From DATKZS01 sp035527835 [NCBI: bacterium] (GTDB lineage: Bacteria; RBG-13-61-14), in contig DATKZS010000012.1 of the NCBI GenBank assembly GCA_035527835.1, forward strand, positions 1-64,000: DNA of 64,000 nt, in the 5' to 3' direction. The position numbers were made by a program, and so were the translations under genes. Under the pieces are notes generated by a model that was given only the letters and a program-made list of their open reading frames with translations, did no database searches and was not told where the DNA came from. This document shows positions 2,967 through 46,396 of the stretch, one piece after another (position 1 is the stretch's first letter; each line of letters begins with the position of its first letter).

Positions 2967-3620
2967 ATGAAGCCGGAGAACAAACAACTACTCATTGCGG
3001 GCGCGGCGGAGCTTGGGGTTCAGCTTTCTGAATTCCAGGCGGGCCTGGTGGACGCCTATCTTTCGCACCTGGACAAGTGGGCGGCGAAGATGAATTTAAC
3101 GGCGGTGAAGGGCGAGCGGGAGCGGGTGGTTAAGCTGGTCCTGGACTCGCTGGCCCTGGCGCCGCTCCTGGATCAGGGGATGCGGGTGGCGGACGTGGGT
3201 AGCGGGGCGGGGCTGCCGGGCCTGCCGGTGAAGATCGCGCGGCCGGACCTGTATATGACGCTGATCGAGTCGCGGCGCAAGCGCGCGGATTTTCTGGGGG
3301 AGGTTGAGAGAAGGCTGGGGCTGCAAGGCCTCACGGTGTTTGCGGGCCGGGCTGAAGAATATAAGGACGCACCGTTCGACGCGGCGCTGGTGCGGGCGGT
3401 GGGGCGTCTGGGAGAGCTCGCGCTGCCGTGCCGGAAGCTGGTGAAGCAGGGCGGCCTGGTCCTGGCCATGAAAGGCCCGGCGCCGGAGAAGGAGATTGCC
3501 GAGGATGATGCACAAATCCAAAAGACCGGGTTCCGGATCAAGGAGCTCAAGCATTACCGACTCCCTGACGGCGCCGGCGGCCGGAGCATCGTGGTCATGG
3601 AAAAGACCAGGTCCCGTTAA
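2967..3620 (+). CDS. rsmG: 16S rRNA (guanine527-N7)-methyltransferase RsmG (GidB)
   Basis: A 217-residue protein of typical length. It carries the RsmG-type SAM-binding motif VADVGSGAGLPGLP at about residues 73-86, preceded by NLTAVKG, and the downstream ALVRAVG segment. It methylates N7 of G527 in the 530 loop of 16S rRNA using SAM. The ATG at 2967 follows the hairpin repeat closely, with GGAGAACC upstream as a possible ribosome site. It is the partner of mnmG immediately upstream and is followed directly by two parS-like sites. Confidence 0.95.
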   Translation: MKPENKQLLIAGAAELGVQLSEFQAGLVDAYLSHLDKWAAKMNLTAVKGERERVVKLVLDSLALAPLLDQGMRVADVGSGAGLPGLPVKIARPDLYMTLIESRRKRADFLGEVERRLGLQGLTVFAGRAEEYKDAPFDAALVRAVGRLGELALPCRKLVKQGGLVLAMKGPAPEKEIAEDDAQIQKTGFRIKELKHYRLPDGAGGRSIVVMEKTRSR

Positions 3621-3621
3621 A

Positions 3622-3637
3622 GGTTTCACGTGAAACC
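3622..3637. promoter_or_regulatory. parS: parS-like centromere site 1
   Basis: A perfect 16-bp palindrome, GGTTTCACGTGAAACC, starting 2 bp after the rsmG stop. Its core GTTTCACGTGAAAC matches the well-known chromosomal parS consensus (TGTTTCACGTGAAACA); only the outermost pair differs. ParB binds such sites and spreads to form the segregation complex near the origin. Confidence 0.8.
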
Positions 3638-3670
3638 ATTCACTCCCTCTTTCCCCACTCTTCCAGCATT

Positions 3671-3686
3671 TGTTTCACGTGAAACA
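3671..3686. promoter_or_regulatory. parS: parS site 2 (exact consensus)
   Basis: TGTTTCACGTGAAACA, identical over all 16 bp to the parS consensus of Bacillus and many other bacteria. It is centred 49 bp from site 1. No parA or parB gene is next to it; the following gene is a sensor kinase. The site lies downstream of mnmG-rsmG, where parAB often follows. Confidence 0.88.
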
Positions 3687-3953
3687 TTTATGATAATCAT
3701 CCTTTTAAATAAAGGATATAATGCTATTGTGTGCTTGAATCGCCGGGCCATCAAATCGCTTCCAAGGTAAATTCGTGGCTTTTTAGGCAGTAAGCCTACA
3801 CAACCCCAAACCAGGAATTTCATATTGGGGGGAAGTAACAAAGGCTGCCCCGTCGGTTCCGACCTGAACAGATAAAAATTTCCTCCTTGCATTTTCTATT
3901 GAGATCGTGTGGGAAAAGTGCTATATTGGCCACGCACTGGAGGGGTCAATGTC
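3687..3953. other. Non-coding leader between parS sites and sensor kinase
   Basis: About 270 bp without a convincing gene. A TATAAT hexamer is at 3717-3722 but has no good -35 partner. GGCTT and AAGCC around 3777-3796 and GTCGGTTCCGAC near 3852-3863 can form small hairpins. I saw no DnaA-box cluster. The segment could hold the kinase promoter. Confidence 0.4.
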
Positions 3954-6488
3954 GTGTCAGGTTCGATTCATATCTCCGCCCGCGGCCGCAACATTATAAT
4001 CACTGCCCTGGCCCTGGCCTTCATCGCGGTCTGCGTCCGGACGGTGATTCATACCCGGACCTGGCTCGGCCGTCCGTTTCCCGGCTTTCTCCTGCTCGGC
4101 AACAACTTTGTTCCGGTGATTTATAGGCCGGAGTGGGAGGGAGTCAGGCAGGGCGTCAAGGTCGGCGACATCCTGGTCGAGATGAACGGCGTCGCGGTGA
4201 CCCGGCCGGACGAGGTCAGGCGGGCGGTGCTTTCCGCGCCGGTCGGCACGGTGTTCACCTACAAGTTCGTGCGTCGCGGCCAGTCCTTCGAGCGCTCCAT
4301 TCCCACCGCCGTGTTTGCGCTCCGAAGCTACATCAGCATCCTCGCGGTCTGGTTCTCCATCGGGCTCGCCTTCATGCTGATGGGCCTCGCGGTCTTTTAT
4401 CTCAAGCCCAATGATCCGGCTCCCCGTGCCTTTCTGCTCCTCGGGATGGTGAGCGCGTTCTCGCAGGCGCCTACCCCGGACTACTGCATGACCAACCAAA
4501 CCTTCCTCCCTCTTATTGTGCTCAACGCGTTGGGGCCATCCATTGTAATCCTCAGCCTGTATTTTCCGGTGGAACTCGAGCGCCGCAAGCCCGTGATCGC
4601 CGTCCTGGCCGTGACCACGGCCCTGATCGTCGCGGGCAACCTGTTCTACTTCCACCGCGTGTTCACATTCATCTATTTCGACAACCTGTTCCTTTTCTAT
4701 CTCATTCTGACGTTTGCCCTCGGGATCATCATTATGGTGCGGTCGTTCCTGAAGTCGAGGGACGCGCTGGTGCGGCAGAAGGCCAAGATCGTGGTCTACG
4801 GCTTCGCGGTCGCCGCGGTTTTCTGTGGGCTCGTCCTGTTCGCTTCGGTGGCGCTCAAGGTGATGAACTTTTCGTGGTTGTTCGTGCCGACATCGCTGAT
4901 GCCGCTCAGCGTGGCCTACGCCATCGGCAAGCACAACCTCTTCGACGTTGACGTCCTGATCCGCCGCAGCGCGAGCTATCTCGCGGTGAGCACGCTCGCC
5001 GTGGCCTTCACCCTCATCCTGCTCAACGCCATCAACCTGGCCTTGCAGTCCGCCACCGGCCAGTCCGCCGAGATCGCCTCCGTCATCACCATTCTGATCA
5101 TGGCCGTGCTCTTCAGGCCCCTGCGCGACCGGGTGGACCGCATGATCGAGCGCCGTTTCTTCGGGGAGAGGTTCGAGTCCCAGCGCACCATCCGCAAGGC
5201 CGCCGGCCTGCTCAACAGCATCATCGCCCTTGACGAGCTCCTGAACCAGGTCCTGGACACGGTCATGGACGCCCTCAAAATCCAGCGCGGCGTCCTCCTC
5301 ATCGAGTCAAAAGGGCAGGACGAGCTGGCCATCGCCCAGATGCGCGACCACTCCCCGCCTCCCCCCGGCAATGAAAAATCCGCCCCCGCCGTGCTCCCGA
5401 CCCTCAAGCTCGGCCATCCGCTGTGGCGCCATCTCCAGGCGACCGGCAAGGCCGTCCAGATCAACGACCTCGAGCGGCCAGACCCGCTGCTGCCTGAGCG
5501 CCACGCCATGATCGAGGCCATGCGCGGGCTCGCCATCGTCCTGGTCATCCCCATCGTCTTCGAGCGCCGCCTGATCGGCGCGCTCGGCCTGGGGCCGCGC
5601 TCCACCGGGGCGCTGTATTCGAGTGAGGACATCGAGCTGCTCGAGACCCTGATGATCCAGGCCGCCGTGTCCATCGAGAACGCCCGCAAGGTGGAGGAGC
5701 TCAAAAAAATGGTCGAGCTCGAGACCTCCTACCGCGAGCTCCAGAAGCTTGACGAGATGAAGGACAACTTTTTGTCCATGGTCAGCCACGACCTGCGCAC
5801 CCCCATGACCGGGATCAAGGCCTACGCCTCCATTATGCGCGAGAAGGTCGGCGCCATCACAGAGGACGACCAGAAAAAATACCTGGACATCGTCATCCAG
5901 CAGAGCGACCGTCTGACCCTGCTCATCAATGACCTGCTCGACATCCAGCGCTTCGAGGCCGGACGCATGTCGCTCGACCTCGCCGACCTCGACCTCGTGC
6001 CGCTGGTGGACCGCGCCGTGGAAGCCTTTGCCGGGGCCTGTGAACAAAAGGGCATCAGCCTGAAAAAGCAATTGCCCGGCCACGGGATCATCGTGGCCGG
6101 CAACGCCGCCCGCCTCGAACAGGTCATGGTCAACCTGCTCTCCAACGCATGCAAGTTCACGCCCGGCCCGGGCGAGATTCGGGTGGCGGTGGAGATGGCC
6201 GCCCGCGGCGGAGCGGGCCCCGCCGCCAGGGTCAGCGTGCGGGACACCGGGCCCGGGATCCCCGTAGAGATGCGGGGCAGGCTCTTCGACAAGTTCTCGC
6301 TGGTGCGCGAGCTGGTGCGCGGCAAGGACCAGGGCAGCGGCCTGGGACTCGCCCTGGCTCGCCAGATCGTCGAGTATCACGGCGGAAGCATTGGGCTGGA
6401 AAGCCCGCCGGAGGGGGGCGCCGAATTTTTCTTCTTGCTCTCGGCCCTCGAATCGGTTAATAATAGGGCAAAGTCTCCGGATGAATGA
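3954..6488 (+). CDS. Membrane sensor histidine kinase with PDZ-like loop and GAF domain (ComP-like layout)
   Basis: The frame opens at GTG 3909, but GTG 3954 follows GGAGGG with 9-bp spacing and is the better start (844 residues). A first membrane helix (about 10-30) is followed by a PDZ-like segment with VKVGDILVEMNGVAV outside the membrane. Six to eight further helices come next, then KHNLFDVDVLIRR, a GAF-like domain (about 400-570), a short coiled coil and the HisKA box SHDLRTPMTGIKAY. The ATPase domain shows NLLSNACKF, DTGPGIP and GSGLGLALA. The order PDZ, membrane bundle, kinase is known from ComP-like receptors. No receiver domain is attached; receivers are encoded just downstream. The ligand is unknown. 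Confidence 0.9.
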   Translation: MSGSIHISARGRNIIITALALAFIAVCVRTVIHTRTWLGRPFPGFLLLGNNFVPVIYRPEWEGVRQGVKVGDILVEMNGVAVTRPDEVRRAVLSAPVGTVFTYKFVRRGQSFERSIPTAVFALRSYISILAVWFSIGLAFMLMGLAVFYLKPNDPAPRAFLLLGMVSAFSQAPTPDYCMTNQTFLPLIVLNALGPSIVILSLYFPVELERRKPVIAVLAVTTALIVAGNLFYFHRVFTFIYFDNLFLFYLILTFALGIIIMVRSFLKSRDALVRQKAKIVVYGFAVAAVFCGLVLFASVALKVMNFSWLFVPTSLMPLSVAYAIGKHNLFDVDVLIRRSASYLAVSTLAVAFTLILLNAINLALQSATGQSAEIASVITILIMAVLFRPLRDRVDRMIERRFFGERFESQRTIRKAAGLLNSIIALDELLNQVLDTVMDALKIQRGVLLIESKGQDELAIAQMRDHSPPPPGNEKSAPAVLPTLKLGHPLWRHLQATGKAVQINDLERPDPLLPERHAMIEAMRGLAIVLVIPIVFERRLIGALGLGPRSTGALYSSEDIELLETLMIQAAVSIENARKVEELKKMVELETSYRELQKLDEMKDNFLSMVSHDLRTPMTGIKAYASIMREKVGAITEDDQKKYLDIVIQQSDRLTLLINDLLDIQRFEAGRMSLDLADLDLVPLVDRAVEAFAGACEQKGISLKKQLPGHGIIVAGNAARLEQVMVNLLSNACKFTPGPGEIRVAVEMAARGGAGPAARVSVRDTGPGIPVEMRGRLFDKFSLVRELVRGKDQGSGLGLALARQIVEYHGGSIGLESPPEGGAEFFFLLSALESVNNRAKSPDE

Positions 6489-6682
6489 AGCGGGAATCAA
6501 GGCGCCGAAAATGATGGTCTCAATCCCGGGCGCGGAGGACATAAGGGCCGTGAATTTCAAACATGCTTTTTCCTTTTTTCCTTTCTTGCGGCCTTCGGCC
6601 CCGCGCGGGCTTGTAGCATTATAAGTATATTTTAGTTTTTATTGCCGCGGCCCGGGCCGCGGTCCCCTGGAGGAGGGAGGCG

Positions 6683-7054
6683 ATGGGCAAAACTATCCTG
6701 GTGGCGGACGACGAGAAGATCGTGCGGGACTCGGTCCGGCTGTGCCTGGAGAGCGAAGGCTATGAGATCCACGAGGCGGAGGACAGCGCGCAGGCGCTGG
6801 CCCGGGCCCGCGAGCTCCGGCCCGACCTGGTGATCCTCGACCTGATGATGCCGGACAAGTGGGGCTACGCCGTGTGCGAGGAGTTGAAAAAGGACCCGGC
6901 CACCAAAAACATCCCCGTCATGTTCCTCACCGCCCGCAAGGGCGCGCCTTCCCGGAAAATCGGCGAGATCAAGGGCGGAGACGCCTACCTGGCCAAGCCC
7001 TTTGCCCCGGAGGAGTTAAGAGAGAAGGTCCGCAAACTACTGAAGCAGGAATGA
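6683..7054 (+). CDS. Stand-alone CheY-like response regulator
   Basis: A 123-residue single receiver domain without an output domain. It shows the acidic pair in VADDEK, the phosphate-acceptor Asp in LVILDLMMPD (about residue 54), the Thr in FLTARKG and the Lys in LAKPFAPEEL. GGAGGGAGGCG precedes the ATG, a strong ribosome site. It sits about 195 bp after the sensor kinase and is a likely phospho-acceptor of that kinase or of the large PAS kinase at 32352-37316. It is closely related to the regulator at 7711-8085, with the same TELKKDEATKNI-type segment, which suggests local duplication. Confidence 0.93.
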   Translation: MGKTILVADDEKIVRDSVRLCLESEGYEIHEAEDSAQALARARELRPDLVILDLMMPDKWGYAVCEELKKDPATKNIPVMFLTARKGAPSRKIGEIKGGDAYLAKPFAPEELREKVRKLLKQE

Positions 7055-7108
7055 ACCTCTGCGGGATTTGCGAACCCGGTTCCTGAGGAACGAGAGGAAG
7101 TATAGCAG

Positions 7109-7543
7109 ATGAATGACAAGGAGAACGATCAAACCGGGAAGCCAGCCACCCGACAGCTCGACATCAATCTTCTCAAGGAGACCTCCGCCGACTGCGACGT
7201 GCGGCAGTGCCTGGACCTGCTGGACCGCGGGGCCGACGTAAACGCCGCGGACGAAGATGGATGCACGCCCCTGATCTGGGCCGCGCTCTCCGGAAAGCGC
7301 GAGACCGTGGAACTCTTAATCGCCAGGGGCGGAGACGTCAACTGCAAGGACAGCGACGGACAGACCCCGCTCCACATCGCCGCCACCACCGGCGACGTGG
7401 CCATGGCCCGGCTGCTCATTGAGAAGGGCGCCGACGTCAACGCGCGCGACTACTTCGGCATCACGCCCCTGCGCTCCGCCGCGCTCAACGAGGATAGCGC
7501 CATGGTGGACCTGCTCAGCAGCAAGGGGGGCAAGCAGAGGTGA
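7109..7543 (+). CDS. Ankyrin-repeat protein
   Basis: A 144-residue protein made of an approximately 35-residue N-terminal part and three to four ankyrin repeats. The repeat signatures GADVNAADEDGCTPL, GGDVNCKDSDGQTPLH and GADVNARDYFGITPL are spaced 33 residues apart. There is no signal peptide, so it is probably a cytoplasmic protein-binding scaffold. GAGAGGAAG lies upstream of the ATG at 7109. It is sandwiched between two nearly identical receiver-domain genes, which hints at a partner or modulator role in that pathway; the role is inference only. Confidence 0.9.
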   Translation: MNDKENDQTGKPATRQLDINLLKETSADCDVRQCLDLLDRGADVNAADEDGCTPLIWAALSGKRETVELLIARGGDVNCKDSDGQTPLHIAATTGDVAMARLLIEKGADVNARDYFGITPLRSAALNEDSAMVDLLSSKGGKQR

Positions 7544-7710
7544 CCGGCGGCCCGCCGCGGGCGCGGCTTTAACTTAATCGTATATTTATAATAGAATTGA
7601 TTGGCGTGCTTGAGGGAAAATTTGGTCTTACCTTTGCGTTCTTTGCGCTTGAATCAAACTTCATTACCTGAATGCCTGAGATGAATCATCGAGGCCCGGG
7701 GAGGCGGTGA

Positions 7711-8085
7711 ATGCCCCAGAAGATTATTATCGCCGACGACGAGGACATGGTCCGCGAGGCCGTGAGGCTCTGCCTCCAAGACGGCGGCTATGAAATCTAC
7801 GAGGCCGCCGACGGCCGCGAGGCCCTCGAACTCGCCCGCCGCATTCTGCCCGACCTCATGGTCCTGGACGTCATGATGCCCGGAATGGCCGGCTACCGCG
7901 TCTGCACCGAGCTCAAGAAGGACGAGGCCACCAAAAACATCTTCATTTTGTTCCTCACCGCCCGCGGCACCCAGCAAGCGGAGAACACCGTGATCCGATC
8001 CGGCGGCGACGAATTCATGGCCAAGCCATTTGACCCCGCGCTGCTGCGGGAAAAAGTGAAACAGGCCCTGGAAACCGAGGCATGA
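7711..8085 (+). CDS. Stand-alone CheY-like response regulator (paralogue)
   Basis: A 124-residue receiver domain with acidic residues in IADDEDM, acceptor Asp in LMVLDVMMPG, Thr in LFLTARG and Lys in MAKPFDPALL. GGGGAGGCG precedes the ATG. It is similar along its length to the regulator at 6683-7054, and the pair flank the ankyrin gene. No DNA-binding domain is attached, so it would act through protein contacts or phosphorelay. A TATAAT at 7587-7592 upstream is a possible but unsupported -10 element. Confidence 0.93.
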   Translation: MPQKIIIADDEDMVREAVRLCLQDGGYEIYEAADGREALELARRILPDLMVLDVMMPGMAGYRVCTELKKDEATKNIFILFLTARGTQQAENTVIRSGGDEFMAKPFDPALLREKVKQALETEA

Positions 8086-8296
8086 CGCCGCCGCCGGCGG
8101 CCTTCAAGACCCCGCGATACGACCAATGGCAAGGTAGGTGGAATTCGTCCCTTGTGATCCCCGCCAGCCGGACTTTGTTCCGCGCCCAAGAATAATCGCC
8201 GCATAATTTAATGTCTTAAACTAACGAGTCGGGGCCCTGCCCCGAAGTTGTTGGCTTCACACATTAATATTTGGCGGAGCTTGGCGGGATGGTATC

Positions 8297-10591
8297 ATGG
8301 GTCTGATGAGGGACTGGGGCAGAGTGAAGGCGGACCTTGCGGGGTTCGTGGTGGGTCTTGGCTCGCTTGGGGTGCAGGTGGTGTTGATCCGGCGGCTGAT
8401 GGCGGCGTTCACGGGCAATGAGCTGACCATCGGGATCGCGCTGGCGGCGTGGATGGCGTGGACGGGCCTGGGGAGCATGGTCACGGGCCGGTGGAGCGAT
8501 CGGATCGAGAAGCCGGGCAATGCGCTCGCCTATGGGTTTTTCGCCGCGGCCGTGCTCATCATCCCCGCGGTGCTGGCGTCGGCGCGGATCAAGCAATGGC
8601 TGGGCGTGGGTCCCGGCGAGGCCGCGTCGCTGCCCGTGATCATCGCTTCGTCGTTCATCATCACCGGTCCGATCTGCGCGGTGTTCGGTTTTGCCTTCAA
8701 CCTGGCGGCGCGGATGCAGAAGGACTTCCGGGCGGCGGCGGGCCGGGCGTACCGGTTCGAGGCGCTGGGCGCGGTGGCGGCGGGGGCGGGGCTGGCGGCG
8801 TGGTTTTCGGGCCAGGCGTCGCCGACCTCGCCAGCGCTCTTGATCTTGGTCATTTTGTGTATTGCGAGCGCGTTGATAAGGGAGCTCAAGCATGGAGGTG
8901 TTTGGTGGAAATCAAGGACCTCGTACCTGATATCGGTCGTCTTTCTGTACGGCACATGGGGATTGATGACGGTTCCTCGGCTGAGCAATTATTACCAGCG
9001 CGCCTATTGGGGCAAGCAGGAGGTATTGGGGTCCTTCGACTCCCGTTACGGTTATCTGGCGGCGGTGCGGGACGGGGACCAGGTCACGATTTTTTCGGAC
9101 GGGACTCCGGCGGCAACGTTTCCGGACCCGGCGCATGACGAGGCGCTGGCGCACGTGGCGCTGGCGTCGTGCGGAGAGCCGTGGCGGGTGCTGCTGATCG
9201 GCGGCTCGTTCACGGGGATGGCGGGGGAGGTTTTGAAGCACGGGGTGGATCGGGTTGACTACGCGCAGATTGACCCGGGCTGGGTGGAGCTGGAGCGGGA
9301 GTTCGCGCCGGGGTTCAACAAGGTTTACGAGGACGGCCGGACCACGGTGATGATCGGCGACGGCCGCGCGTTGCTCGTGAAGGGGGATGCGCTTTACGAC
9401 GCGATCATTGTTGATCTGCCGGACCCGTTCACGGCGGCGCAGGACCGGTATTACACGGCGGAGTTCATGATGGAGGCGCGGCGGGCCCTGGTTCCGGGCG
9501 GGGTGCTGGCGCTGACGGCGGGGACGACGCCTCCGAACAAGGTGTACACTGCGGGCCAGCTCGGGCTGCTGTCGGGGGTGATGCACACGGCGGGGGCGGT
9601 GTTCAGGCGGGTTGAGGTCCTGCCGCTGGATTTCAACCTGGTGCTGGCCGGAGATTCGCTCACGCCTTTTGCCATCGAGCCGGCCGCGATTGACGCGGTG
9701 CTCGGGGAGCGCGGCGTCCGGAGCTTTTACGCGTCCTCGAACCTGATCGGGCCGGACCTCGCGCCTCCGCTGCTCGCGGACATCAAGGCGCGGGTGGCCG
9801 AGGCCCCGGCCGTGATTGACCGCGACCTTTTCCCGCGCGGGTATTTTTACGGGATCATGCTCTGGGCGGAGCGGGCGTCGCCGTGGGCGCGGCGGGTGAT
9901 CGCGGCGGCGGCCAAGCTGCCGGCGTGGTCGTTGCTGCTGATTCCGGCTCTGGTCCCGGCGCTGGGTCTGGGTCTGGAGCGCAGGGACCGGGCGGCGGGG
10001 GAGGCGGCGCTGGCGGCGGGGGTTTCCGGGTTCGCGGGGGTGGTGGTGGAGGTCGCGGTGATGATCGCGTACCAGGTGATGGCGGGCGCGGTTTACAGCG
10101 CGCTGGCCCTGCTCACGGCGTCGTTCATGGCGGGGCTGGGGCTGGGCGCGTGGGCTTCCGAGAAGGCGCGGGAGCGGGCGGGCCTGGTGACGATGGAGGC
10201 GGTGCTGGCGGGGTGGATCTTGCTCAGCATTTTGATCGTGGCCGAGGCGGGCGCGGCGGGGATGCGGGGAGGCGCGGCCACGATGATTTTCTGCGGCGTG
10301 CTTCTGGGCCAGGGCGCGGCGGCGGGGGCGGTATTCGCGGCGGCGGCGCGGCAGGCGGTGCGGCGGGAGGGCGAACTGGGCCGGTCGGTGGGGCTGGTTT
10401 ACGGCACGGAGCTCCTGGGCAGCGCGCTGGGCGGGCTCGTGACGGGCGCGGTGCTGGCGCCGGTGTTCGGGATTGTGCTCGCGCTGGGGGCGGCGCTGCT
10501 GGCGGCATTGGCGCTGGTGATGCATTCTTTGTTCACACGGAGACACGGAGAACTCAGCGCGGCTCAAGGCCGCAACCAAAGAGTTTATTAA
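8297..10591 (+). CDS. Membrane-embedded spermidine synthase-like protein
   Basis: A 764-residue protein. About six membrane helices (residues 12-215) precede a Rossmann-type spermidine-synthase-like domain (about 225-480). That domain has LLIGGSFTGM in place of the usual GGGDG loop and the family's IVDLPDPFTAAQDRYYT segment. Six to seven more helices follow (about 525-750). Fused membrane/spermidine-synthase proteins are widespread and mostly uncharacterised, so aminopropyl transfer is not assured. The last residues (FTRRHGELS...) are encoded by a sequence resembling one arm of the 'CACGGAGACACGGAG' repeats, so the C-terminus may have been altered by repeat insertion. ATG 8297 or 8306 could be the start. 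Confidence 0.85.
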   Translation: MGLMRDWGRVKADLAGFVVGLGSLGVQVVLIRRLMAAFTGNELTIGIALAAWMAWTGLGSMVTGRWSDRIEKPGNALAYGFFAAAVLIIPAVLASARIKQWLGVGPGEAASLPVIIASSFIITGPICAVFGFAFNLAARMQKDFRAAAGRAYRFEALGAVAAGAGLAAWFSGQASPTSPALLILVILCIASALIRELKHGGVWWKSRTSYLISVVFLYGTWGLMTVPRLSNYYQRAYWGKQEVLGSFDSRYGYLAAVRDGDQVTIFSDGTPAATFPDPAHDEALAHVALASCGEPWRVLLIGGSFTGMAGEVLKHGVDRVDYAQIDPGWVELEREFAPGFNKVYEDGRTTVMIGDGRALLVKGDALYDAIIVDLPDPFTAAQDRYYTAEFMMEARRALVPGGVLALTAGTTPPNKVYTAGQLGLLSGVMHTAGAVFRRVEVLPLDFNLVLAGDSLTPFAIEPAAIDAVLGERGVRSFYASSNLIGPDLAPPLLADIKARVAEAPAVIDRDLFPRGYFYGIMLWAERASPWARRVIAAAAKLPAWSLLLIPALVPALGLGLERRDRAAGEAALAAGVSGFAGVVVEVAVMIAYQVMAGAVYSALALLTASFMAGLGLGAWASEKARERAGLVTMEAVLAGWILLSILIVAEAGAAGMRGGAATMIFCGVLLGQGAAAGAVFAAAARQAVRREGELGRSVGLVYGTELLGSALGGLVTGAVLAPVFGIVLALGAALLAALALVMHSLFTRRHGELSAAQGRNQRVY

Positions 10592-14985: not shown

Positions 14986-15205
14986 CTTTTTCAGCGCCAA
15001 AGGCGCGGAATTCTCCAGCCTGGGGTGTGAACCCCAGGAAGGGAGATCATTCAATGCTTTTCAGCGCTGAAGGCGCGACATAGAACTGTCTTTATCTCGC
15101 CCCTTCAGGGCTGAAAAGGATATTGGGGACGCCGAGATCCCAGGGTAGGCCGAGGACGGCCAACCCTGGGCTATCTTATTATCGCCCTTTCAGGGCGGAA
15201 GAAAT
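14986..15205. repeat. Dispersed palindromic repeat, 'CCCTTTCAGGGC' family, copy 2
   Basis: It contains TTTTCAGCGC and GGCGCGGAA arms, CCTGGGGTGTGAACCCCAGG, GCCCCTTCAGGGCTGAAAAGG, CCCAGGGTAGGCC with GGCCAACCCTGGG, and CGCCCTTTCAGGGCG. The right half (about 15097-15200) is nearly the same as 18571-18680. It fills the gap between the acyltransferase start and the stop of the hydrolase at 15273. Confidence 0.8.
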
Positions 15206-25473: not shown

Positions 25474-26799
25474 TTATTGTTGCCGGCCCATAACCTGATC
25501 CATAAGCTTCATTTGTTCCTCGATCACGATGCCCGCTTCCTTTTTTCCGAAGATGGTTGTGCCCGGCTCGTAGGATGAGCCCTCGCTGAACTCGTCCGGT
25601 TCGGCGCAGTACCAGTAGAAATCGTTGGCCAGGCCGACGACCAGGGGATGAGTTATGCCGGGCCGGAGAGCGGAGTCGCGGAGCTGCTTGCCGGGCGTCG
25701 CGGTCATCTCCACGGGCACGGCGAGGAGTGCGAGGTCGCCGATGCGCACGGCCTGGAGGGTGAGCGCGGGGAAGAGGGCGTGGGTCGCGCGGGCGGAGAG
25801 CGGGAGGCCCATGATGTGGCCGGGCCCGGGGACGCTCTCACGCATGAGGGCATAGCTCACCGGCGCGGCGGGAGCGGGGAAGGCAGTGTCCAGCGCGGCA
25901 ATCACGGCGTCGCCCATTTGCGATCCGATCCTCTGTCTCCAGGTCCAGTCATCGGCGCCGTCGTCGAGGACGATGGGTGTCTGGTCGCCCTCGGCGCCGT
26001 TCATGAACATGGCGACCGCGCCGGACGCCGCGGCCTCGATCCGGTCCATGGCCACGCCGGGCCATTCCGCTGTGATCAGCATGTTATCGGCGCCCATGAT
26101 GGTGGCGTGGGCCGCGAAGTGAAACAGCACGGCAATGGGCGCGCCGTCCGCGCCGTCGAAGCGGACCACGGTAAGGACCGGATTGGTGGGGCCTGCGGCT
26201 GGCGCGGCGCTCTTGGAGTGCCGGGTGGTGTAGCTGTAGTCCTTGCCAAAGCGGCGGTTGCGCACGAGGCCGGGCAGCTCGGCCGCGGCGATGCGCATGG
26301 CCGCGGGCTCCCGGGCCGCGTCCGCGGCCTTGACGGCGGCGGCGATCTTGTGCGCGAGCTCGGTGGTGAAGGCGTCGTTATAGCGGCCGAACAGGGCCTG
26401 GAAGAGCGCGTTCTTGTCGTAGCCGGCCGGTCCTGAGTGGGAGTGAGTAGCGCAGAGCAGGAGGTTATCGTCGCCGTAATTCGTGCCGGCAAGATCGGCA
26501 ATGACTTTTTCCCGGAGCGCGGCAGAGACGGAGACGAGATCGCAGCTCACGAGGGCCACGCTCCTCGCGCCGTCGCTAACGGTGATGGCCTTGCAGTGGA
26601 TGGGGTCGTGGACGCCGCGGGCGGGCCGGAGCAGACGCGCGCTGTAGCCGGCCAGGGGCACGCGGCGCGCGGAGAGGTCGGGAGTGATATCGGCCACGGC
26701 GGCGCCGGCGGAGAAGACTGATTCATCAGCGGCCGCCGCCGAGAACAGGATGATGAGTCCGCTGGCGAGGACGATTAAGGCGCGACGCAAAATTTTCAT
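25474..26799 (-). CDS. Neutral ceramidase-like secreted protein, paralogue 3
   Basis: A 441-residue protein with signal peptide (LIVLASGLIILFSAAAA) followed by AGAAVADITPDLS, the characteristic N-terminal motif of the neutral/alkaline non-lysosomal ceramidase family. The zinc-site segment CATHSHSGP and a second His in FHFAAHATIMG are present. The nucleophile region reads NGAEGDQTP where Pseudomonas ceramidase has GDVSP. It starts directly at the stop codon of the upstream paralogue (TAA then ATG), so translation is likely coupled. It lacks the C-terminal Ig-like domain of true ceramidases, being about 200 residues shorter. The substrate is probably not settled. Confidence 0.82.
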   Translation of the reverse strand: MKILRRALIVLASGLIILFSAAAADESVFSAGAAVADITPDLSARRVPLAGYSARLLRPARGVHDPIHCKAITVSDGARSVALVSCDLVSVSAALREKVIADLAGTNYGDDNLLLCATHSHSGPAGYDKNALFQALFGRYNDAFTTELAHKIAAAVKAADAAREPAAMRIAAAELPGLVRNRRFGKDYSYTTRHSKSAAPAAGPTNPVLTVVRFDGADGAPIAVLFHFAAHATIMGADNMLITAEWPGVAMDRIEAAASGAVAMFMNGAEGDQTPIVLDDGADDWTWRQRIGSQMGDAVIAALDTAFPAPAAPVSYALMRESVPGPGHIMGLPLSARATHALFPALTLQAVRIGDLALLAVPVEMTATPGKQLRDSALRPGITHPLVVGLANDFYWYCAEPDEFSEGSSYEPGTTIFGKKEAGIVIEEQMKLMDQVMGRQQ

Positions 26800-28125
26800 T
26801 TATTCGCTCGCCATGAGCTTCCTGACCAGCAGCATCTGCTCGCCGATGACCACGCCGGCCTCGATCTCGCCGAAGATGGTGTTGCCAACCTCGTAGCCGC
26901 CCTTAGGAAAATCCTCGGGGGTGGCGCAATAGAGCAGTGTGTCGTTGGCGAGTCCGGCGACGATTGGATACCTGGCGCCCTGCCCGCGCGCGCCGCTTTT
27001 CAGGGTCTGGCCGATGGCGGTGACCATCTCCAGCGGCGCGGCCATGAACACGACGTCGCCCACGCGCACGGCCTGGAGCGGGAGCTCGGGAAAATAGTGC
27101 TTGATGAGCGCGGAGGGCACGTGGTAGCCCATCACGACCTTGCCCGGCGGCATGGCGCGGCGCTCCATGACCGCCGTGACCGGCGCGGCGGCTACGGTAG
27201 CGGCGTTGTCCAGGGCGGCGAGCGCGGCGTCGGCCACTTTTACCCCGATGATGTCGAGGTACTCGAAGTCCGTGTGGTCGTCCTGGTCCATGGCGGGCGC
27301 CTGGTCGCCCTCGGCGCCGTTCATGTAGAGGGCCACGGCGCCGGGCAGCGCGGCCTCGATTTTTTTCTGCATCGCGCCGGGCCAGTCGGCGGAGAGTTGC
27401 ATGTTGTCCGGGCCGAGCACGGTGCCGTGGGTGGCGAAGCTCACGAGCACGGCGATGGGCTTGCCGTCCTCGCCCACGGCCTCGACCACGGTGACGGCCG
27501 GGTCAATGCTGTTGCGCGGATTGTTGGGCTCGTAGGCGGATGAGAAGCGGCGGGTATCGTAGTTGTAGGAGCCGGCCGGGTCGCGGCGGTTCCGGGTGGC
27601 GTCGGGAGCGGATGCGGTCCCGACTTTGAGCACGGCGGGCCGCATGGAGGCGTCGGCCTGTTTCACGGCGGCCCCGATGCGGTCCGCGGTCTGCTGCGTG
27701 AGCTTATCGTTGTATTTTCCGAAGACGACGCCGGCGATTCCGTTGTTGAGCATGGCGCCGGGCCCGGAGTGGGTATGGCTCGCGGCCATGAGCAGGTTAT
27801 GGTCGTCAATGCCGGTTCCCTGGACGGCGGCCAGGACCTTTGCGCGGAGGTCCGGGGAGATGCCGACCATGTCGCAGGTGACGATGGCGGCCTTATTAGC
27901 GCCGTCGCTGACCACCAGGGCCTTGCACATGATGGGGTCGTGCACACCCTCCATCGGCTTCGGCCCGCGGTCGCCGTAGCCGGAGGACGGGACCTTCATG
28001 GCACTGAGGTCAGGAGTGATGTCGGCGGCGGCGGCCCCGGCCATGAAGGCGGCGGAGGCCGGGATGGAAAGGGCCAGCGCGACTAACACTATGAGGCCGG
28101 CGCAAAAGACTTTTACCTTTTTCAT
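26800..28125 (-). CDS. Neutral ceramidase-like secreted protein, paralogue 2
   Basis: A 441-residue protein with signal peptide (VLVALALSIPASAAF), AGAAAADITPDLS, AASHTHSGPG as first zinc segment, VSFATHGTVLG as second, and NGAEGDQAP at the nucleophile loop, where an Ala stands at the position of the ceramidase serine. It is very similar to the paralogue at 28267-29589 (shared NRRDPAGSYNYDTRRFSSAY-type stretch), less so to the one downstream. AGGGACC lies before the ATG. It is the middle gene of a tandem triplet on the minus strand. Confidence 0.85.
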   Translation of the reverse strand: MKKVKVFCAGLIVLVALALSIPASAAFMAGAAAADITPDLSAMKVPSSGYGDRGPKPMEGVHDPIMCKALVVSDGANKAAIVTCDMVGISPDLRAKVLAAVQGTGIDDHNLLMAASHTHSGPGAMLNNGIAGVVFGKYNDKLTQQTADRIGAAVKQADASMRPAVLKVGTASAPDATRNRRDPAGSYNYDTRRFSSAYEPNNPRNSIDPAVTVVEAVGEDGKPIAVLVSFATHGTVLGPDNMQLSADWPGAMQKKIEAALPGAVALYMNGAEGDQAPAMDQDDHTDFEYLDIIGVKVADAALAALDNAATVAAAPVTAVMERRAMPPGKVVMGYHVPSALIKHYFPELPLQAVRVGDVVFMAAPLEMVTAIGQTLKSGARGQGARYPIVAGLANDTLLYCATPEDFPKGGYEVGNTIFGEIEAGVVIGEQMLLVRKLMASE

Positions 28126-28167
28126 GGTCCCTCCAGTTTTTCTGGCGATTTGCCGTATCAGATAAGA

Positions 28168-28238
28168 AACAAGGATTATAAGGATGTCAAGGATAATTTT
28201 TAAAAATCTTATCCTGTGAATCTTGAATATCCTTGTCG
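28168..28238. repeat. Palindromic repeat, 'AAGGATATTCAGGATG' family, copy 2
   Basis: AACAAGGATTATAAGGATG and onward, with TTATCCTGTGAATCTTGAAT continuing to ATCCTTGT, form a hairpin after the stop of paralogue 1. It separates it from paralogue 2, so the tandem triplet is not one unbroken transcription unit if the hairpin terminates. Confidence 0.8.
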
Positions 28239-28266
28239 CTTTTTTAATTCTTCTTTTCGGGCCTCA

Positions 28267-29589
28267 TCACCTCATTACCTGGCGGGCCAGGAGCATCTGC
28301 TCGCCGATGAGGAAGCCGGCCTCGATCTTTCCGAACACGGTGTTGTCCACCTCGTAGCCGCCGCGCTCGAACTGGTCGGGCGTGGCCGCGTACATGCCGT
28401 GGTCGTTGGCAAGGCCGGCGACCAGCGGATACGGGACGCCCGCGCCCCGGGCGCCCGCCTTCATGGTGAGACCGATCGAGGCAATGGCCTCGACCGGCAG
28501 CGCCATGAACACCACGTCGCCCATGCGCACGGCCTGGAGCGGCATGGCCGGGAAGTAATGCTTGATCAGGGCCTTGGGCACGGTCATGTCCGCGAGCTTA
28601 TTGGTGGTGGGCGGGACGGCGATGCGGGCCATGACGCCGCGCACCGGCACGGCCGTAACCGGCTGGGCGTCGTCCATGGCCGCGATCACGCCGTCGGCGA
28701 CTCTTCCGCCGATGATGCCGAGGTAGTCGAGGTCGGAGTTATTGTCCTGGTCCATGGCGGGCGCCTGGTCGCCCTCGGTGCCGTTCATGTACATGACCAC
28801 GTAGCCGGGCGCGTGGGCCTCGACCTTGGCCCGGGCCGCGCCGGACCAGTCGGCGGAGAGGTCGAGGTTCTGGGCGGAGAGCACGGTCCCGTGGGTGGCG
28901 AAGTGGAAGAGCAGCGCGATGGGCGATCCGTCCTCTCCGTCCACCTTGATCACGGTGAGGGCGGGGTCAATGAGGTTCTCGGGGTTGTCGGGGTCATAGG
29001 CGGAGCTGAAGCGGCGGGTGTCGTAGTCATAGGAGCCGGCCGGGTCGCGGCGGTTGCGGGTCGCGTTGGCTACCGTGGTCACCGCGACCTTGAGCACGGC
29101 GGGCTTCATGGAGGCGCGGGCATCCTTCACGGCGGAAATGATCTGGTCCGCGGTCCACTGGGTCAGCTCCTCGTTATAGGCGCCGAAGCCGAGGCGCGCG
29201 ATCAGGTTGGGCATCATGTTGCCGGGCCCGGAGTGGGTGTGGCTGCACGAGAAGAGCAGGTTGTCGTCGCCGATGCCGGCGCCCGCGAGCCCGTCCAGCA
29301 CTTTCCTCCGCAGCACGGGCGGCGTGCCCATCAGGTCGCAAGTCACGATCACGGCCTCGCCCTGTCCGTCGCCCATTGCCAGCGCCTCGCAATACACCCG
29401 GTCGTGCACTCCGGTCATGACCTTGTGCGAGAAATAGCCGATGGAGTTGACCTTCCACTTATGCACGTCCGGTGTAATGTCGGCAAGGGCAGCCCCGGCC
29501 TGGAAGGTCTGGGCGAAAGAGGCCGCGGACCAGGATAAAAGTCCGCACAGGACCATAACCGCGATAAGCCATCTCTTTGTTCCGCGCAT
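28267..29589 (-). CDS. Neutral ceramidase-like secreted protein, paralogue 1
   Basis: A 440-residue protein with signal peptide (VMVLCGLLSWSAASFAQ), AGAALADITPDVH, the zinc segments SCSHTHSGPG and FHFATHGTVLS, and NGTEGDQAP at the nucleophile loop. The family hydrolyses the amide bond of ceramides or related lipids; without the usual Ser the reaction here is uncertain. It is the first gene of the triplet, divergent from the small toxin-antitoxin-like pair at 29836-30317. Confidence 0.85.
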   Translation of the reverse strand: MRGTKRWLIAVMVLCGLLSWSAASFAQTFQAGAALADITPDVHKWKVNSIGYFSHKVMTGVHDRVYCEALAMGDGQGEAVIVTCDLMGTPPVLRRKVLDGLAGAGIGDDNLLFSCSHTHSGPGNMMPNLIARLGFGAYNEELTQWTADQIISAVKDARASMKPAVLKVAVTTVANATRNRRDPAGSYDYDTRRFSSAYDPDNPENLIDPALTVIKVDGEDGSPIALLFHFATHGTVLSAQNLDLSADWSGAARAKVEAHAPGYVVMYMNGTEGDQAPAMDQDNNSDLDYLGIIGGRVADGVIAAMDDAQPVTAVPVRGVMARIAVPPTTNKLADMTVPKALIKHYFPAMPLQAVRMGDVVFMALPVEAIASIGLTMKAGARGAGVPYPLVAGLANDHGMYAATPDQFERGGYEVDNTVFGKIEAGFLIGEQMLLARQVMR

Positions 29590-32351: not shown

Positions 32352-35300
32352 CTAAGAATTATCGGCCGGGGGTAGGCTGACGGTGAAGGTTGTTCCCTTT
32401 CCCGGCTCGGATTTGACCTTGACGTCTCCGCCGTGGAGCCTGGCGATCCTTTGGACGATGGCGAGTCCGAGTCCGGTTCCCTGTGCGTCTTTGCGGCGGG
32501 AGACGAAGGGGGTGAAGATGTCGGGCAGATCTTTCTTGGGGATTCCGACCCCGGTGTCGGCGATCATGAGTTCGACCATGCCGCGTTTTAAACGGGTGGA
32601 CACGGTGACCTGGCCCTTCTTGGTTCCGAGGGCCTGGAGGGCGTTGATGACGAGGTTGGAGATCAGGTCGAAGAGGTGTTCGGCGGAGCCGTTGACCTTG
32701 GGGACCTTATCATCGAGCCGGGTTTTCAGGCCGGCATTGGGCCTGGTCTCGATTTCATGGGAGAGGGCGTCGAGGACTTGGCGGACCAGGGTATTGAGGT
32801 CCACCGGCTCGAACTCGGCGCTCTTGGTGGAGGCGTAGTTGATGATGCGGGCGAGCAGGCGCTGGATGCGTTCCACGGATTCCTCGATGCGCTTGACGTT
32901 CTCCCGGTCGGCCTTTTTGAGGGATTGCAATTTTTCGAGGGCCTGGGAGTAATAGCTGATGGCGGTGAGGGGACTGTTCATGTCGTGGGCGACGCCGGCG
33001 GCGATCTGTCCGACCCCGGCCATGTGCTCGGCCTGGAGCAGTTGGTCCTGGGATTGGCGCAGCGCCTGCTCGGCGCGGCGGCGCTCGATGATGTCGCGGA
33101 AGGCGACGATAATGGCGGACGGCCGGTTATTGGAGTCCCGGATCAGGGTCCCGGAGGCCTCACCCGGATATTCTGAGCCATCGTGGCGTAACAGGGTCAG
33201 CTCGAGGTCCCTGACCTGACCATTGGTGACGACGGAGGCCAGTTTTTCCACGGCTCTTTCACGGTCGGCTTGAGCTACAAGGGGGAAGGCGTTTTGCCCG
33301 ATCAGCTCCTGGAGGCCTGGTCCTCCCCAGAGCTCGAGGGCGCGGCGGTTGGCCGTGAGGATGTTGCCGGCGAGGTCCACCATGATGATGGCGTCGGGTG
33401 AGGTCTCGACCAAGGTGCGGTATTGTTGCTCGCTCTCCCTGATGGCCCGCTCGGTCCTCTTAATGTCGGTGATGTCCCGGATGATGCCGTGGAAACCGAG
33501 CACCTCGCCGTCTTTTCCCCGCCAGAGGGTGGAGGTGATGATGACGTCGCGCTCGCGTCCGTCTTTGTCGCGGAGCTTGACCTCGTAATCGCGGACGGCG
33601 CCGGTTTTTTCGATCTGCTCGCGATAGTCGTCCCTCTGGCGCGGATCCACGTAGAGATCCATGACGTTCATTCCCAGGAGCTCTTCGCGGGAGTAACCGG
33701 ACAGTTCCACGGCGGCTTGGTTGACATCAAGGAGCCTGCCGTCGGTGCTCACGAGGTACACGGCGTCGCGGGAGTCCTGGAAGAGGGTGCTGTATTTTCG
33801 TTCGCTGGCCAGGAGGTCATGTTCGGTTTTAACGCGCTCGGCGATCTCGAAGCGAAGATTTTCGTTGGCATTGAGGAGGTCGGCGGTGCGCTTCTCGACC
33901 AGGTCTTCGAGGCGCTCGCGGTATTTATTGAGCTCGGCCTCGGTCCGCTTTCGTTGGGTGATGTCGCGGGTGACCCCGAGGAACCCGACGGGGTTTCCGG
34001 CGGGGTCGCGCAGGAAAGAGATACTTGCTTCGGTCAAGATTGTGGAGCCGTCCTTGCAGCGTTCCTCAAATTCGAGCGTCCGTTTCCGTTTCGGGTCTTT
34101 ATCCGGCCTCTTTTCTATTTCCATCTCTTCGCTGAGAACCTGAATGGCCATGCGCAGGCTCTCCGGCGTCAGCCTCTGTTCCAGAGTTTGGTGGAAGGCC
34201 TCTTCGACGGTATACCCGCGCAGGCGCTCAATGGACGGGCTGATGTAGGTGATTTGGAGGTTCAAATCCGCTGTCCAGATGAGGTCCGTGACGTTATTGG
34301 CCAGCAGGCGGTAGCGCTCCTCGCTCTCCCGGAGAGCCTGGTCGGCCCGCTTGCGCGCGGTGATGTCGCGGGTCATGACCTGGATGGCATGGACCTTTCC
34401 GTCCTTTTTCAGGGCGGAAGGAAATATTTCGAGCCAGACGGCGTCTCCGCCGGGCGGGGTGTGCTTGACTTCGAAGGGCTGGACTTTTTCCCCGCGGATG
34501 AGGCTGGCTATGAGGTCGGCGTATCCGGGCACGTCTTTTTCCTTGATCAGTCCGACCTGGCTGAAGGGCTTGCCGATCCTTTCCTCGCGGGGCAGGCTGG
34601 TGAGGATGCCGCGGGAGGTGTTGAGGTCGAGAATGGTGCCATCCAATCCGACCACGGCGATGGTTTCGGGGGCTGACTCGAAGAGGGCGCGGTACTTGGC
34701 TTCGCTCTCGCGGAGTGAATCCTCAGCGCGCTCGCGCTCGGCGGCCTCGTTTTTCAGTTGCTCGTTGGCGGCGGTGAGCTCGGCGGTGCGGCGCTCGACG
34801 AGTTCTTCGAGGCGCTCGCGGTAACGGGTGAGCTCCATTTCCACGCGCTTGCGGTCGGTGATGTCGCGGATGACGCCGATGAAGCCGGCGGGCGCGCCCT
34901 GACCGTCGCGGATGATGGAGGCGCTGAGCTCGACGGGCAGGATGGACCCGTCTTTTCGGATCATGGTGAACTCGACGCCGGCAATACTCCCGAACTCCCG
35001 GAGCCGCTGAGCGATTTCCTCGGTTTGCTGCTCGAAGTCCTTGGCGATGAATTCGTATGCTTTGCGGCCCTGGACGTCCTTCACGGCCTCCGCCCCGAAG
35101 AGCTTGAGGGCCTTTTCATTGAGCATGGTTATAATCCCGTTTTGTCCGGTGACGACGATGGCGTCGGGCGAGGTGTCCACCAGGAGGCGGTAGCGGGCCT
35201 CGCTTTCCTTGAGGGCCTCTTCGGCCCTTTTCCTCTCGGTGACGTCGCGGATGATTCCCTGGTAGCCCGTGATATTGCCCGAGGCGTCGCGGCGGAGAGT

Positions 35301-41606: not shown

Positions 41607-42287
41607 TTACGGCGCCATGAAAACCATCAGCGCGTTCTTGGCCTCCAGCAAAACGTGGTGTCCCAGCACGTTACTGATGATGAGGTCAGCGGGCGCCCAC
41701 ACCAGAAGCTGGAAGATCGGAACCCAGGTCGAGATGAGCACCAGGCCCAGCAACAGCCACATCCCGTGTCGCATCACCGGCTCGATTTTCAGCGCGGCCT
41801 TCCTGGGCAGTATCTCCATCAAGATGTGGCTCCCGTCCAGCGGCGGCACCGGGAGCAGGTTGAAGAAACACAGCGCCAGGTTGAGTTGCGCTCCGATAAA
41901 TAAGAACGCCAGCACCGGCCCGGCTGAGGCCTGGGCCCCCGCGAAGGCGTGAACCGCCAGGATAGCGAGCAGCAGGACAAGCCCGGTGGCCAGGTTGGAA
42001 GCCGGACCCGCGGCGCTCACCAGGATGTCGTCCCTCCCCGCGTGCTTGAACCGGAGCGGGTTCACCGGCGTCGGCTTGGCCCAGCCGAGACCGATGATAA
42101 TAAAAGCCAACGCCCCGATCAGGTCTATGTGCTTCAATGGGTTCAGGGTCACCCGCCCCATCAGCGCCGCCGTGTCGTCCCCGCACAAGTACGCCGTGTA
42201 AGCATGGCAGGCCTCGTGCAGCGACAGGGCGAAGAGCACGTGCGGGATGAACAAGACCCAGTAAGTCATTTCCGAATGTAGCTGCAT
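41607..42287 (-). CDS. Site-2 protease family membrane metalloprotease
   Basis: A 226-residue protein with five to six membrane helices. The zinc motif HExxH appears as HEACH (about residues 24-28), and the second conserved motif is NLLPVPPLDGSHIL. It has the SAAGPASNLATG turn of the compact M50 family. It would cleave membrane proteins within the lipid bilayer; substrate unknown. There is no PDZ domain, as usual for this short subgroup that accompanies trpS and scpAB. Start at residue 1 or at Met 7 (MTYWVLF). Confidence 0.9.
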   Translation of the reverse strand: MQLHSEMTYWVLFIPHVLFALSLHEACHAYTAYLCGDDTAALMGRVTLNPLKHIDLIGALAFIIIGLGWAKPTPVNPLRFKHAGRDDILVSAAGPASNLATGLVLLLAILAVHAFAGAQASAGPVLAFLFIGAQLNLALCFFNLLPVPPLDGSHILMEILPRKAALKIEPVMRHGMWLLLGLVLISTWVPIFQLLVWAPADLIISNVLGHHVLLEAKNALMVFMAP

Positions 42288-45711: not shown

Positions 45712-46395
45712 TTATTGCGACAACTTTTCGAGCCTGGTCAACCATTCGTTGAAGTGGGGGCATTGCTCGCGGATTTTTTCAATGCCGATACCTTTGGCTA
45801 TCAAGATCCCGTGTTTCACCTTTTGATATCGGGCCGCTAGGCCTGCTATGCGCTTGCTGGGATGTTTTTCCGGATTATCATCTATGTCTTCCGGCGTCCT
45901 GAATCCCTTTCGGATCGTTTGCAACTCAGCCGCCAACTTCCGCCTTTGCGCTTCAGTTCCCAATCGCAAGATGGTATCCGCCATTAGCACGGGTGATGAG
46001 AAAAGCAGACCTTCGAATTCGTGCAATTGAATATAGGGTATGAACCGAGGATCATTAATATCCCTAGCCAGCGCCGCTTCCAATATCCTTACCTTTTGAA
46101 ATCCGTCTTTGCCCTTCAGGTTGCGCCGCCCGGGAAAATCAGTCGGCAGCCCATAATAATCATACATCATCGTTACCGCGCTCGCGCTCGAGTCTCCGAG
46201 AAGCCGCCTGATCTCGCCGTTTATTTTCGGGTAGGATCTTAGTCCGCCCTTATAATCGGGGCCGGAAACGACCCTTCTTGTAGGAATGCTCTTGGGCTGG
46301 ATGAAAACATTTTTCGGCCATAAGTAATCATAGACAAGCTGCCTAATAAACTCTTCTTCGGTTTGGCCCTCAACCAGAATCAGAACCTTGGTCAA
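45712..46395 (-). CDS. DUF4276 protein (TOPRIM-like fold)
   Basis: A 227-residue protein. The N-terminus VLILVEGQTEEEFIRQLVYD and the later MMYDYYGLPTDFPG are the DUF4276 signature; the Glu and Asp residues occupy the positions of a TOPRIM metal site. It starts 1 bp after the ATPase stop, so the two are a two-gene unit. ATPase plus TOPRIM-type partners are known as phage-defence systems (for example PARIS), and OLD-family nucleases fuse these two parts. Function as a nuclease is inference. Confidence 0.82.
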   Translation of the reverse strand: MTKVLILVEGQTEEEFIRQLVYDYLWPKNVFIQPKSIPTRRVVSGPDYKGGLRSYPKINGEIRRLLGDSSASAVTMMYDYYGLPTDFPGRRNLKGKDGFQKVRILEAALARDINDPRFIPYIQLHEFEGLLFSSPVLMADTILRLGTEAQRRKLAAELQTIRKGFRTPEDIDDNPEKHPSKRIAGLAARYQKVKHGILIAKGIGIEKIREQCPHFNEWLTRLEKLSQ

Positions 46396-46396
46396 C

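What the first reader, a model, noticed from the sequence alone, without database searches (positions are those of the whole stretch)
3622..3686. Two parS centromere sites next to mnmG-rsmG without parAB
One exact 16-bp parS consensus and one near-exact palindrome lie 49 bp apart right after rsmG. In many bacteria mnmG-rsmG-parA-parB sits beside the origin. Here the sites remain but the next gene is a sensor kinase, so parAB are elsewhere or the site pair marks a rearranged origin region. It locates this contig near oriC and suggests mnmG-side order was changed.
Basis: partly seen in the sequence, partly recalled or inferred. Interest (0 to 1): 0.68.

Follow-up and report, generated by a model that had tools for sequence, protein, structure and literature searches.

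The report
Chromosome centromere sites beside rsmG, parAB-less
The window carries two textbook bacterial centromere (parS) sites just after the gene rsmG, without the partner genes parA and parB that often follow; genomes of another bacterial group show the same arrangement, so this looks like an ordinary variant in which the sites stay near the replication origin while the protein genes lie elsewhere.

Summary
Two perfect 16-bp palindromes with the identical core GTTTCACGTGAAAC lie at 3622-3637 and 3671-3686, one base after the rsmG stop codon. They are the only matches (up to 3 mismatches) in 64 kb; chance expects 0.06. mnmG and rsmG are confirmed, the next gene is a sensor kinase, and no ParA or ParB was found in the window. 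No genome is held, so the organism's own parAB could not be sought. In 100 genomes of the phylum of the one relative found (a Nitrospira MAG), parS (variant GTTCCACGTGGAAC) sits at mnmG-rsmG in 67 of 95 genomes with mnmG. In 12 of these no good ParB lies within 10 kb on that contig; for nine the contig ends within about 3 kb. The clear case, G022, has one parS filling the gap between rsmG and an unrelated convergent gene. Where mnmG lies 430-960 kb from dnaA (four genomes), parS is not with it. So parS seems to track the origin, and the window is probably origin-proximal. Skew shows no minimum at 3.6 kb. A 4.2-kb two-component block right after the sites has reversed skew, a hint of insertion or inversion. 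Ordinary ParABS centromere. Separate lead: phage contigs carry parS clusters without ParB.

The parts
3622..3637 (.). parS site 1, GGTTTCACGTGAAACC, perfect palindrome; one base lies between it and the rsmG stop codon
3671..3686 (.). parS site 2, TGTTTCACGTGAAACA, contained letter for letter in the parSCc (Caulobacter) oligo printed in PMC10547168
944..2815 (+). mnmG (gidA)
   Evidence: Pfam; 57% identity over 615 aligned positions to L001 MnmG
2967..3620 (+). rsmG (gidB)
   Evidence: Pfam GidB 5e-46
3899..3927 (+). sigma-70-like promoter match (TTGAGA-17-TATATT) between the sites and the kinase
   Evidence: 1 found, mean 0.5 in shuffles, weak
3954..6488 (+). sensor histidine kinase (GAF, HisKA, HATPase_c; a weak PDZ match below Pfam's cut-off); start at GTG 3954 is my reading, the ORF list starts at 3909
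3954..8085 (+). block kinase - response regulator - ankyrin protein - response regulator with reversed four-fold-site skew

Best explanation
The two palindromes are chromosomal parS centromere sites. A ParB protein made elsewhere in the genome loads on them (a CTP-dependent clamp in known systems), spreads over the neighbouring DNA, is moved by ParA and helps load SMC, so that the origin region separates first. They sit in an old parS place, the 3' end of rsmG in the mnmG-rsmG-(parAB) region. parAB are no longer next to them, or were not next to them in this lineage, and a two-component block lies there instead. Shown: sites, neighbours, no parAB found in the window, and the same arrangement in another group of bacteria. 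Inferred: ParB binding, parAB elsewhere in this genome, nearness to oriC, and insertion or inversion of the block.
For: Sequence and number far beyond chance. The core equals the published Caulobacter parS, and site 2 fits the consensus 5'-TGTTNCACGTGAAACA-3' printed in PMC4409726, where parS lies inside gidB just before parA. In the Nitrospira phylum, parS lies at mnmG-rsmG in 67 of 95 genomes. In the 12 fetched loci that have parS at the rsmG 3' end, 1-8 bases lie between the stop and the 14-mer in 8, it overlaps the last codons in 2, and 38 and 174 bases lie between in 2. In G022 one parS fills the 16 bp between rsmG and a convergent protein-kinase gene; its only ParB match is on another contig, and no ParA lies in the 5.8 kb read beyond the site. 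G013 and G046, close to G022 in RsmG, and G024 are similar over shorter stretches. parS-dnaA distance: 33 of 37 within 150 kb, median 23.6 kb, and parS is not with mnmG in the four genomes where mnmG is 430-960 kb from dnaA (G048, G053, G080, G084).
Against: No ParB of this organism was seen, because no genome is held. The sampled phylum is probably not the window's own: full-length MnmG identity is 63% at most, and 0 of 100 genomes carry the window's variant GTTTCACGTGAAAC. Of the 12 genomes with parS but no good ParB near, nine have contigs ending within about 3 kb of rsmG, so separation is clear only in G022. parS keeps to mnmG-rsmG-parAB also at 120-330 kb from dnaA (G010, G098, G089, G037, G095, G056), so 'near the origin' is loose. 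The 37 distances come only from genomes with both on one contig, which favours short ones, and seven contigs were taken as circular, three with rounded sizes. The skew shows no minimum at the sites.
Confidence: 0.82

Rival explanations
1. parAB were displaced recently: the kinase/response-regulator block (3954-8085) was inserted, or a segment inverted, with an end just after parS, splitting a former mnmG-rsmG-parS-parAB cluster.
For: The block has pooled four-fold-site skew -0.25 (620 sites), against +0.27 for 11 other plus-strand genes and +0.30 for 20 minus-strand genes. No run of 620 sites clear of the block falls below -0.08, and 146 of 20000 gene-order shuffles give so negative a run of four genes. 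In the Nitrospira phylum 1.5-3.3 kb of other DNA lies between rsmG and parA in G025, G049, G054 and G074.
Against: The block was picked after seeing the data, the 35 genes were picked by hand, and one gene gives 441 of the 620 sites. Another gene (41607-42287) is at -0.46 and five more are between 0 and -0.06. No flanking inverted repeats of 14 bases or more in 3600-8500 except the parS sites. parAB were not found in the next 56 kb.
Confidence: 0.35
2. parAB were never adjacent in this lineage, or left long ago: parS at the rsmG end is the lasting state, as in the G022 lineage.
For: 10 of 24 genomes with ParB on another contig have parS at mnmG-rsmG, clearest in G022.
Against: Most of those contigs end soon after rsmG (contig lengths), so adjacency cannot be excluded for them. 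0 of 9 genomes with ParB more than 10 kb away on the same contig keep parS at mnmG-rsmG.
Confidence: 0.45
3. The palindromes are operators of a different DNA-binding protein that controls the kinase gene or rsmG.
For: They lie 5' of a kinase gene with a promoter-like match at 3899-3927; ParB itself was not seen.
Against: The 14-bp core is exactly the published Caulobacter parS, at the place where parS sits in other bacteria; the sites lie more than 200 bp from the promoter-like match.
Confidence: 0.06
4. Assembly chimera: the rsmG-parS end and the kinase block were joined in error.
For: Skew changes sign at the junction; no reads to check.
Against: GC of the block (0.62-0.65) is like the window's, and the skew returns to positive after it, so two false joins would be needed.
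Confidence: 0.04

Closest known systems
Caulobacter-type chromosomal parS (parSCc)
   Same: Identical core GTTTCACGTGAAAC (oligo printed in PMC10547168, passages seen)
   Different: parA-parB do not follow here
mnmG-rsmG-parA-parB of Nitrospira sp. KAN-bin2 (L001)
   Same: mnmG-rsmG order with parS at the rsmG end
   Different: There the sites are GTTCCACGTGGAAC, one at each end of rsmG, and parA starts about 20 bp after rsmG
G022/G013/G046 lineage of the same phylum: mnmG-rsmG-parS without parAB in view
   Same: 1-6 bases between the rsmG stop and parS, unrelated next gene, ParB on another contig
   Different: Single site after rsmG plus one before mnmG; the next gene (G022, G046) is a convergent Pkinase-domain gene, not a two-component kinase; the G013 and G046 contigs end within 2.4 kb
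Thermus thermophilus parSc inside gidB (PMC4409726, passages seen)
   Same: parS tied to gidB/rsmG
   Different: Inside the gene, and parA directly follows

Membership tests
Chromosomal ParABS system | 16-bp palindromic parS of consensus TGTTNCACGTGAAACA | tested here: met
   site 2 fits fully, site 1 differs in the outer base pair
Chromosomal ParABS system | parS near the replication origin | tested here: inconclusive
   No DnaA-box excess, no dnaA by tblastn with two DnaA sequences, no skew minimum at the sites; support only from 37 genomes of another phylum
Chromosomal ParABS system | parB encoded in the same genome | not testable with these tools
   No genome held; not found in the 64-kb window
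Chromosomal ParABS system | parA encoded in the same genome | not testable with these tools
   As for parB; not found in the window
Chromosomal ParABS system | ParB binds the sites | not testable with these tools
   Needs ChIP-seq or in vitro binding
Canonical mnmG-rsmG-parA-parB cluster | parA and parB directly follow rsmG | tested here: not met
   The next gene is a sensor kinase; no ParA/ParB found in the window

The most novel reading that the evidence does not exclude
parS, not parAB, is the fixed part of the bacterial centromere region: the 3' end of rsmG keeps its parS in unrelated phyla for as long as the mnmG-rsmG unit stays near the origin, while parAB wander off and are replaced by unrelated genes.
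Probability: 0.3. Interest if true: 0.42.

Novelty: new member of a known kind. Interest (0 to 1): 0.25.

Why it matters
It is an example of a centromere apart from its partition genes, and it suggests a rule of thumb for unplaced contigs: in the phylum sampled, parS beside rsmG goes with nearness to dnaA, whereas mnmG-rsmG alone does not. The site variant (GTTTC here, GTTCC in that phylum) also says something about the unseen ParB: PMC10547168 reports that Bdellovibrio ParB (GTTCC site) does not accept the Caulobacter site, while Caulobacter ParB accepts both (passages seen), so this organism's ParB should not be of the strict Bdellovibrio kind.

Tried and rejected
Whole-genome search for parAB and further parS: impossible, no genome held. 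Taxonomy: the RsmG scan of genome contigs, which looks for six exact 8-residue patterns, found one relative, a Nitrospira MAG at 42% identity over residues 6-133. MnmG in its phylum is 47-63% identical over full length (higher only for fragments) and the GTTTC form of parS is absent there (0 of 100), so I think the window belongs to another phylum, which I could not name. RsmG in viral contigs: no relative. Structured RNA between the sites and the kinase: nothing near a family's threshold. Flanking inverted repeats around the block: none of 14 bases or more except the parS sites. oriC inside the window: no DnaA-box excess, no dnaA. PMC2168934 (Livny 2007), a survey of parS, is not held; I know it only through passages in other papers. 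A paper search for parS + rsmG + ParB + oriC as whole words found none. Searches gave listings (titles, starts of abstracts); passages were read in PMC7333895, PMC3899335, PMC4409726 and PMC10547168; no paper was read whole.

Rows dropped or softened: of the 100 genomes, five (G035, G039, G045, G060, G085) have no MnmG or only a fragment and are not in the table of 95; G035 is among the 37. G069 is counted as without ParB although one search lists a weak match below the cut-off (2.8e-5); G055 is counted as having ParB although its match is just below the cut-off. Only the best ParB match of each genome was used.

Full report
What is there. The window carries mnmG (944-2815) and rsmG (2967-3620) on the plus strand. 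With one base between it and the rsmG stop codon begins GGTTTCACGTGAAACC (3622-3637), and after a further 33 bp TGTTTCACGTGAAACA (3671-3686). Both are perfect palindromes with the same 14-bp core. A search with up to 3 mismatches finds these two and nothing else in 64 kb (0.06 expected). The core is the parS printed for Caulobacter in PMC10547168, and site 2 fits the consensus TGTTNCACGTGAAACA printed in PMC4409726 (passages seen). The next gene is a sensor kinase with GAF, HisKA and HATPase_c domains and a weak PDZ match, followed by a response regulator, an ankyrin protein and a second response regulator; the two regulators are 70% identical in DNA over 234 nt.

No parAB in view. ParA and ParB profiles built from 5 and 6 sequences of the Nitrospira phylum find nothing in six frames of the window at E<=10 (1325 segments); run on L001, which was among their sources, they score 1.6e-143 and 1.2e-136. 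tblastn with the L001 proteins gives nothing better than E 0.8 for either. The window reaches 60 kb to the right of the sites but only 3.6 kb to the left, and no genome is held, so parAB elsewhere in the genome can be neither shown nor excluded.

Comparison. The RsmG scan of genome contigs (six exact 8-residue patterns) returned one relative, L001 of a Nitrospira MAG. It has mnmE-mnmG-rsmG-parA-parB (my reading of the ORFs) with GTTCCACGTGGAAC at both ends of rsmG. From it I sampled 100 genomes of its phylum. ParB (TIGR00180) matches in 95 of 100, over the cut-off in 93; GTTYCACGTGRAAC in 90 of 100; the window's own variant GTTTCACGTGAAAC in 0 of 100. For the 95 genomes with a usable mnmG (coordinates), parS counted as 'at mnmG-rsmG' if it lay from 2.3 kb before to 2 kb after the 3' end of mnmG. 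ParB within 3 kb of mnmG: 46 genomes, 45 with parS there. 3-10 kb: 13, 10 with. More than 10 kb on the same contig: 9, 0 with. ParB on another contig: 24, 10 with. No ParB counted: 3, 2 with (one of these, G069, has a weak match below the cut-off). So parS is there in 67 of 95.

How real is the separation? Of the 12 genomes with parS but no good ParB within 10 kb, nine (G013, G024, G027, G034, G040, G046, G061, G069, G077) have contigs that end within about 3 kb of rsmG, two (G050, G062) have contig lengths that I did not see, and one, G022, is clear. In G022 the 16 bp between the stop codons of rsmG and a convergent Pkinase-domain gene hold one parS and little else; its contig runs 9.8 kb beyond rsmG, the only ParB match is on C241, and L013 (5.8 kb of that stretch) has no ParA. 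G046 has the same kind of gene next, and G046 and G013 are close to G022 in RsmG (84% and 90%). G024 has parS overlapping the last codons of rsmG, a convergent tRNA-synthetase-domain gene next, dnaA 1.4 kb from the other end of mnmG and ParB on C17. In G025, G049, G054 and G074 parS follows the rsmG stop after 1-8 bases and 1.5-3.3 kb lies between rsmG and parA; in G025 that stretch holds a CLP1_P and a prismane-family gene.

Does parS mark the origin? Where parS and dnaA share a contig (37 genomes) the distance has a median of 23.6 kb, 25 of 37 within 50 kb and 33 of 37 within 150 kb; the other four are 155-328 kb. Contigs that hold both favour short distances, seven contigs were taken as circular (three with rounded sizes), and dnaA need not mark oriC exactly. 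In the four genomes where mnmG is 430-960 kb from dnaA (G048, G053, G080, G084; G048 is measured along a partial contig), parS is not with mnmG but 11-261 kb from dnaA. Against a tight rule: in G010, G098, G089, G037, G095 and G056 the whole mnmG-rsmG-parS-parB cluster lies 120-330 kb from dnaA. So in this phylum parS keeps broadly to the origin side, and mnmG-rsmG does not always. By analogy the window, with parS beside rsmG, is probably origin-proximal. That is an inference across phyla.

Skew. At four-fold degenerate sites the plus strand is G-rich both in plus-strand genes (pooled +0.27, 11 genes) and in minus-strand genes (+0.30, 20 genes), as expected for one replication direction through the whole window with the origin to the left (35 genes picked by hand). 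No minimum lies at 3.6 kb; the lowest cumulative value is at 635, next to the window's edge, and says little. The main exception is the four-gene block directly after the sites (3954-8085), pooled -0.25 over 620 sites. No run of that size clear of the block goes below -0.08, and 146 of 20000 gene-order shuffles reach it. This suggests an insertion or inversion at the parS boundary, but I chose the block after seeing the data, one gene gives 441 of 620 sites, gene 41607-42287 is at -0.46, and five more genes lie between 0 and -0.06.

Verdict. An ordinary chromosomal parS pair in a recognised parS place, apart from parAB. It is a new member of a known kind; the two-site layout and the reversed-skew block are local details. 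Interest is low to moderate.

A separate lead. To ask whether close parS pairs occur in mobile DNA I scanned IMG/VR. GTTTCACGTGAAAC twice with 20-50 bp between gave 51 stretches, GTTCCACGTGGAAC 28, and the backwards control of the first pattern 0 (no control was run for the second). The 79 loci lie in 78 records and form 60 groups by blastn of the fetched stretches; in 57 of 79 the clusters lie in no open frame of 100 codons. Of the first 51 loci, 25 hold three to six exact sites. ParB passes its cut-off in 1 of 78 records (1 of 50, 0 of 28; 6 of 78 at E<=1e-3); many records are fragments, so this does not show that the viruses lack ParB. Of 20 loci that I picked, the largest ORF (up to 1200 aa) matched a PHROG at 1e-8 in 15, among them terminase, portal, tail, endolysin and polymerase families. 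Phages may borrow the host's ParABS, as SGI1 is reported to do with a plasmid parABS (PMC10954446, search listing only). Two paper searches (listings only) showed me no report of this for phages.

Noticed in passing
L049-L127 (IMG/VR virus contigs): Close pairs or clusters of exact chromosomal-type parS sites (20-50 bp between sites) in 78 virus records, 79 loci in 60 sequence groups; backwards control of the first pattern 0; ParB over cut-off in 1 of 78 records (many are fragments); 15 of 20 picked largest ORFs match phage families. Phages may use the host's ParABS for their own partition.
   Followed up: partly
45712-47521: Minus-strand pair AAA_21 ATPase + DUF4276 protein, strong matches to the candidate anti-phage system HEC-01A/HEC-01B of PADLOC (2.3e-123 and 5.4e-77).
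   Followed up: partly
14993-15038: Acido-Lenti-1 RNA on the minus strand, above the Rfam gathering score (49.6 against 37 bits).
   Followed up: no
640-900: Stretch of short GC-rich inverted-repeat-like elements between the first gene and mnmG, REP-like by eye; no second copy in the window.
   Followed up: partly
25474-29589: Three consecutive minus-strand genes, all matching the neutral/alkaline ceramidase N-terminal domain.
   Followed up: partly
32352-37316: 1654-aa sensor kinase with 8 PAS stretches.
   Followed up: no
6683-8085: Two single-domain response regulators, 70% identical in DNA over 234 nt, with an ankyrin-repeat gene between them.
   Followed up: partly
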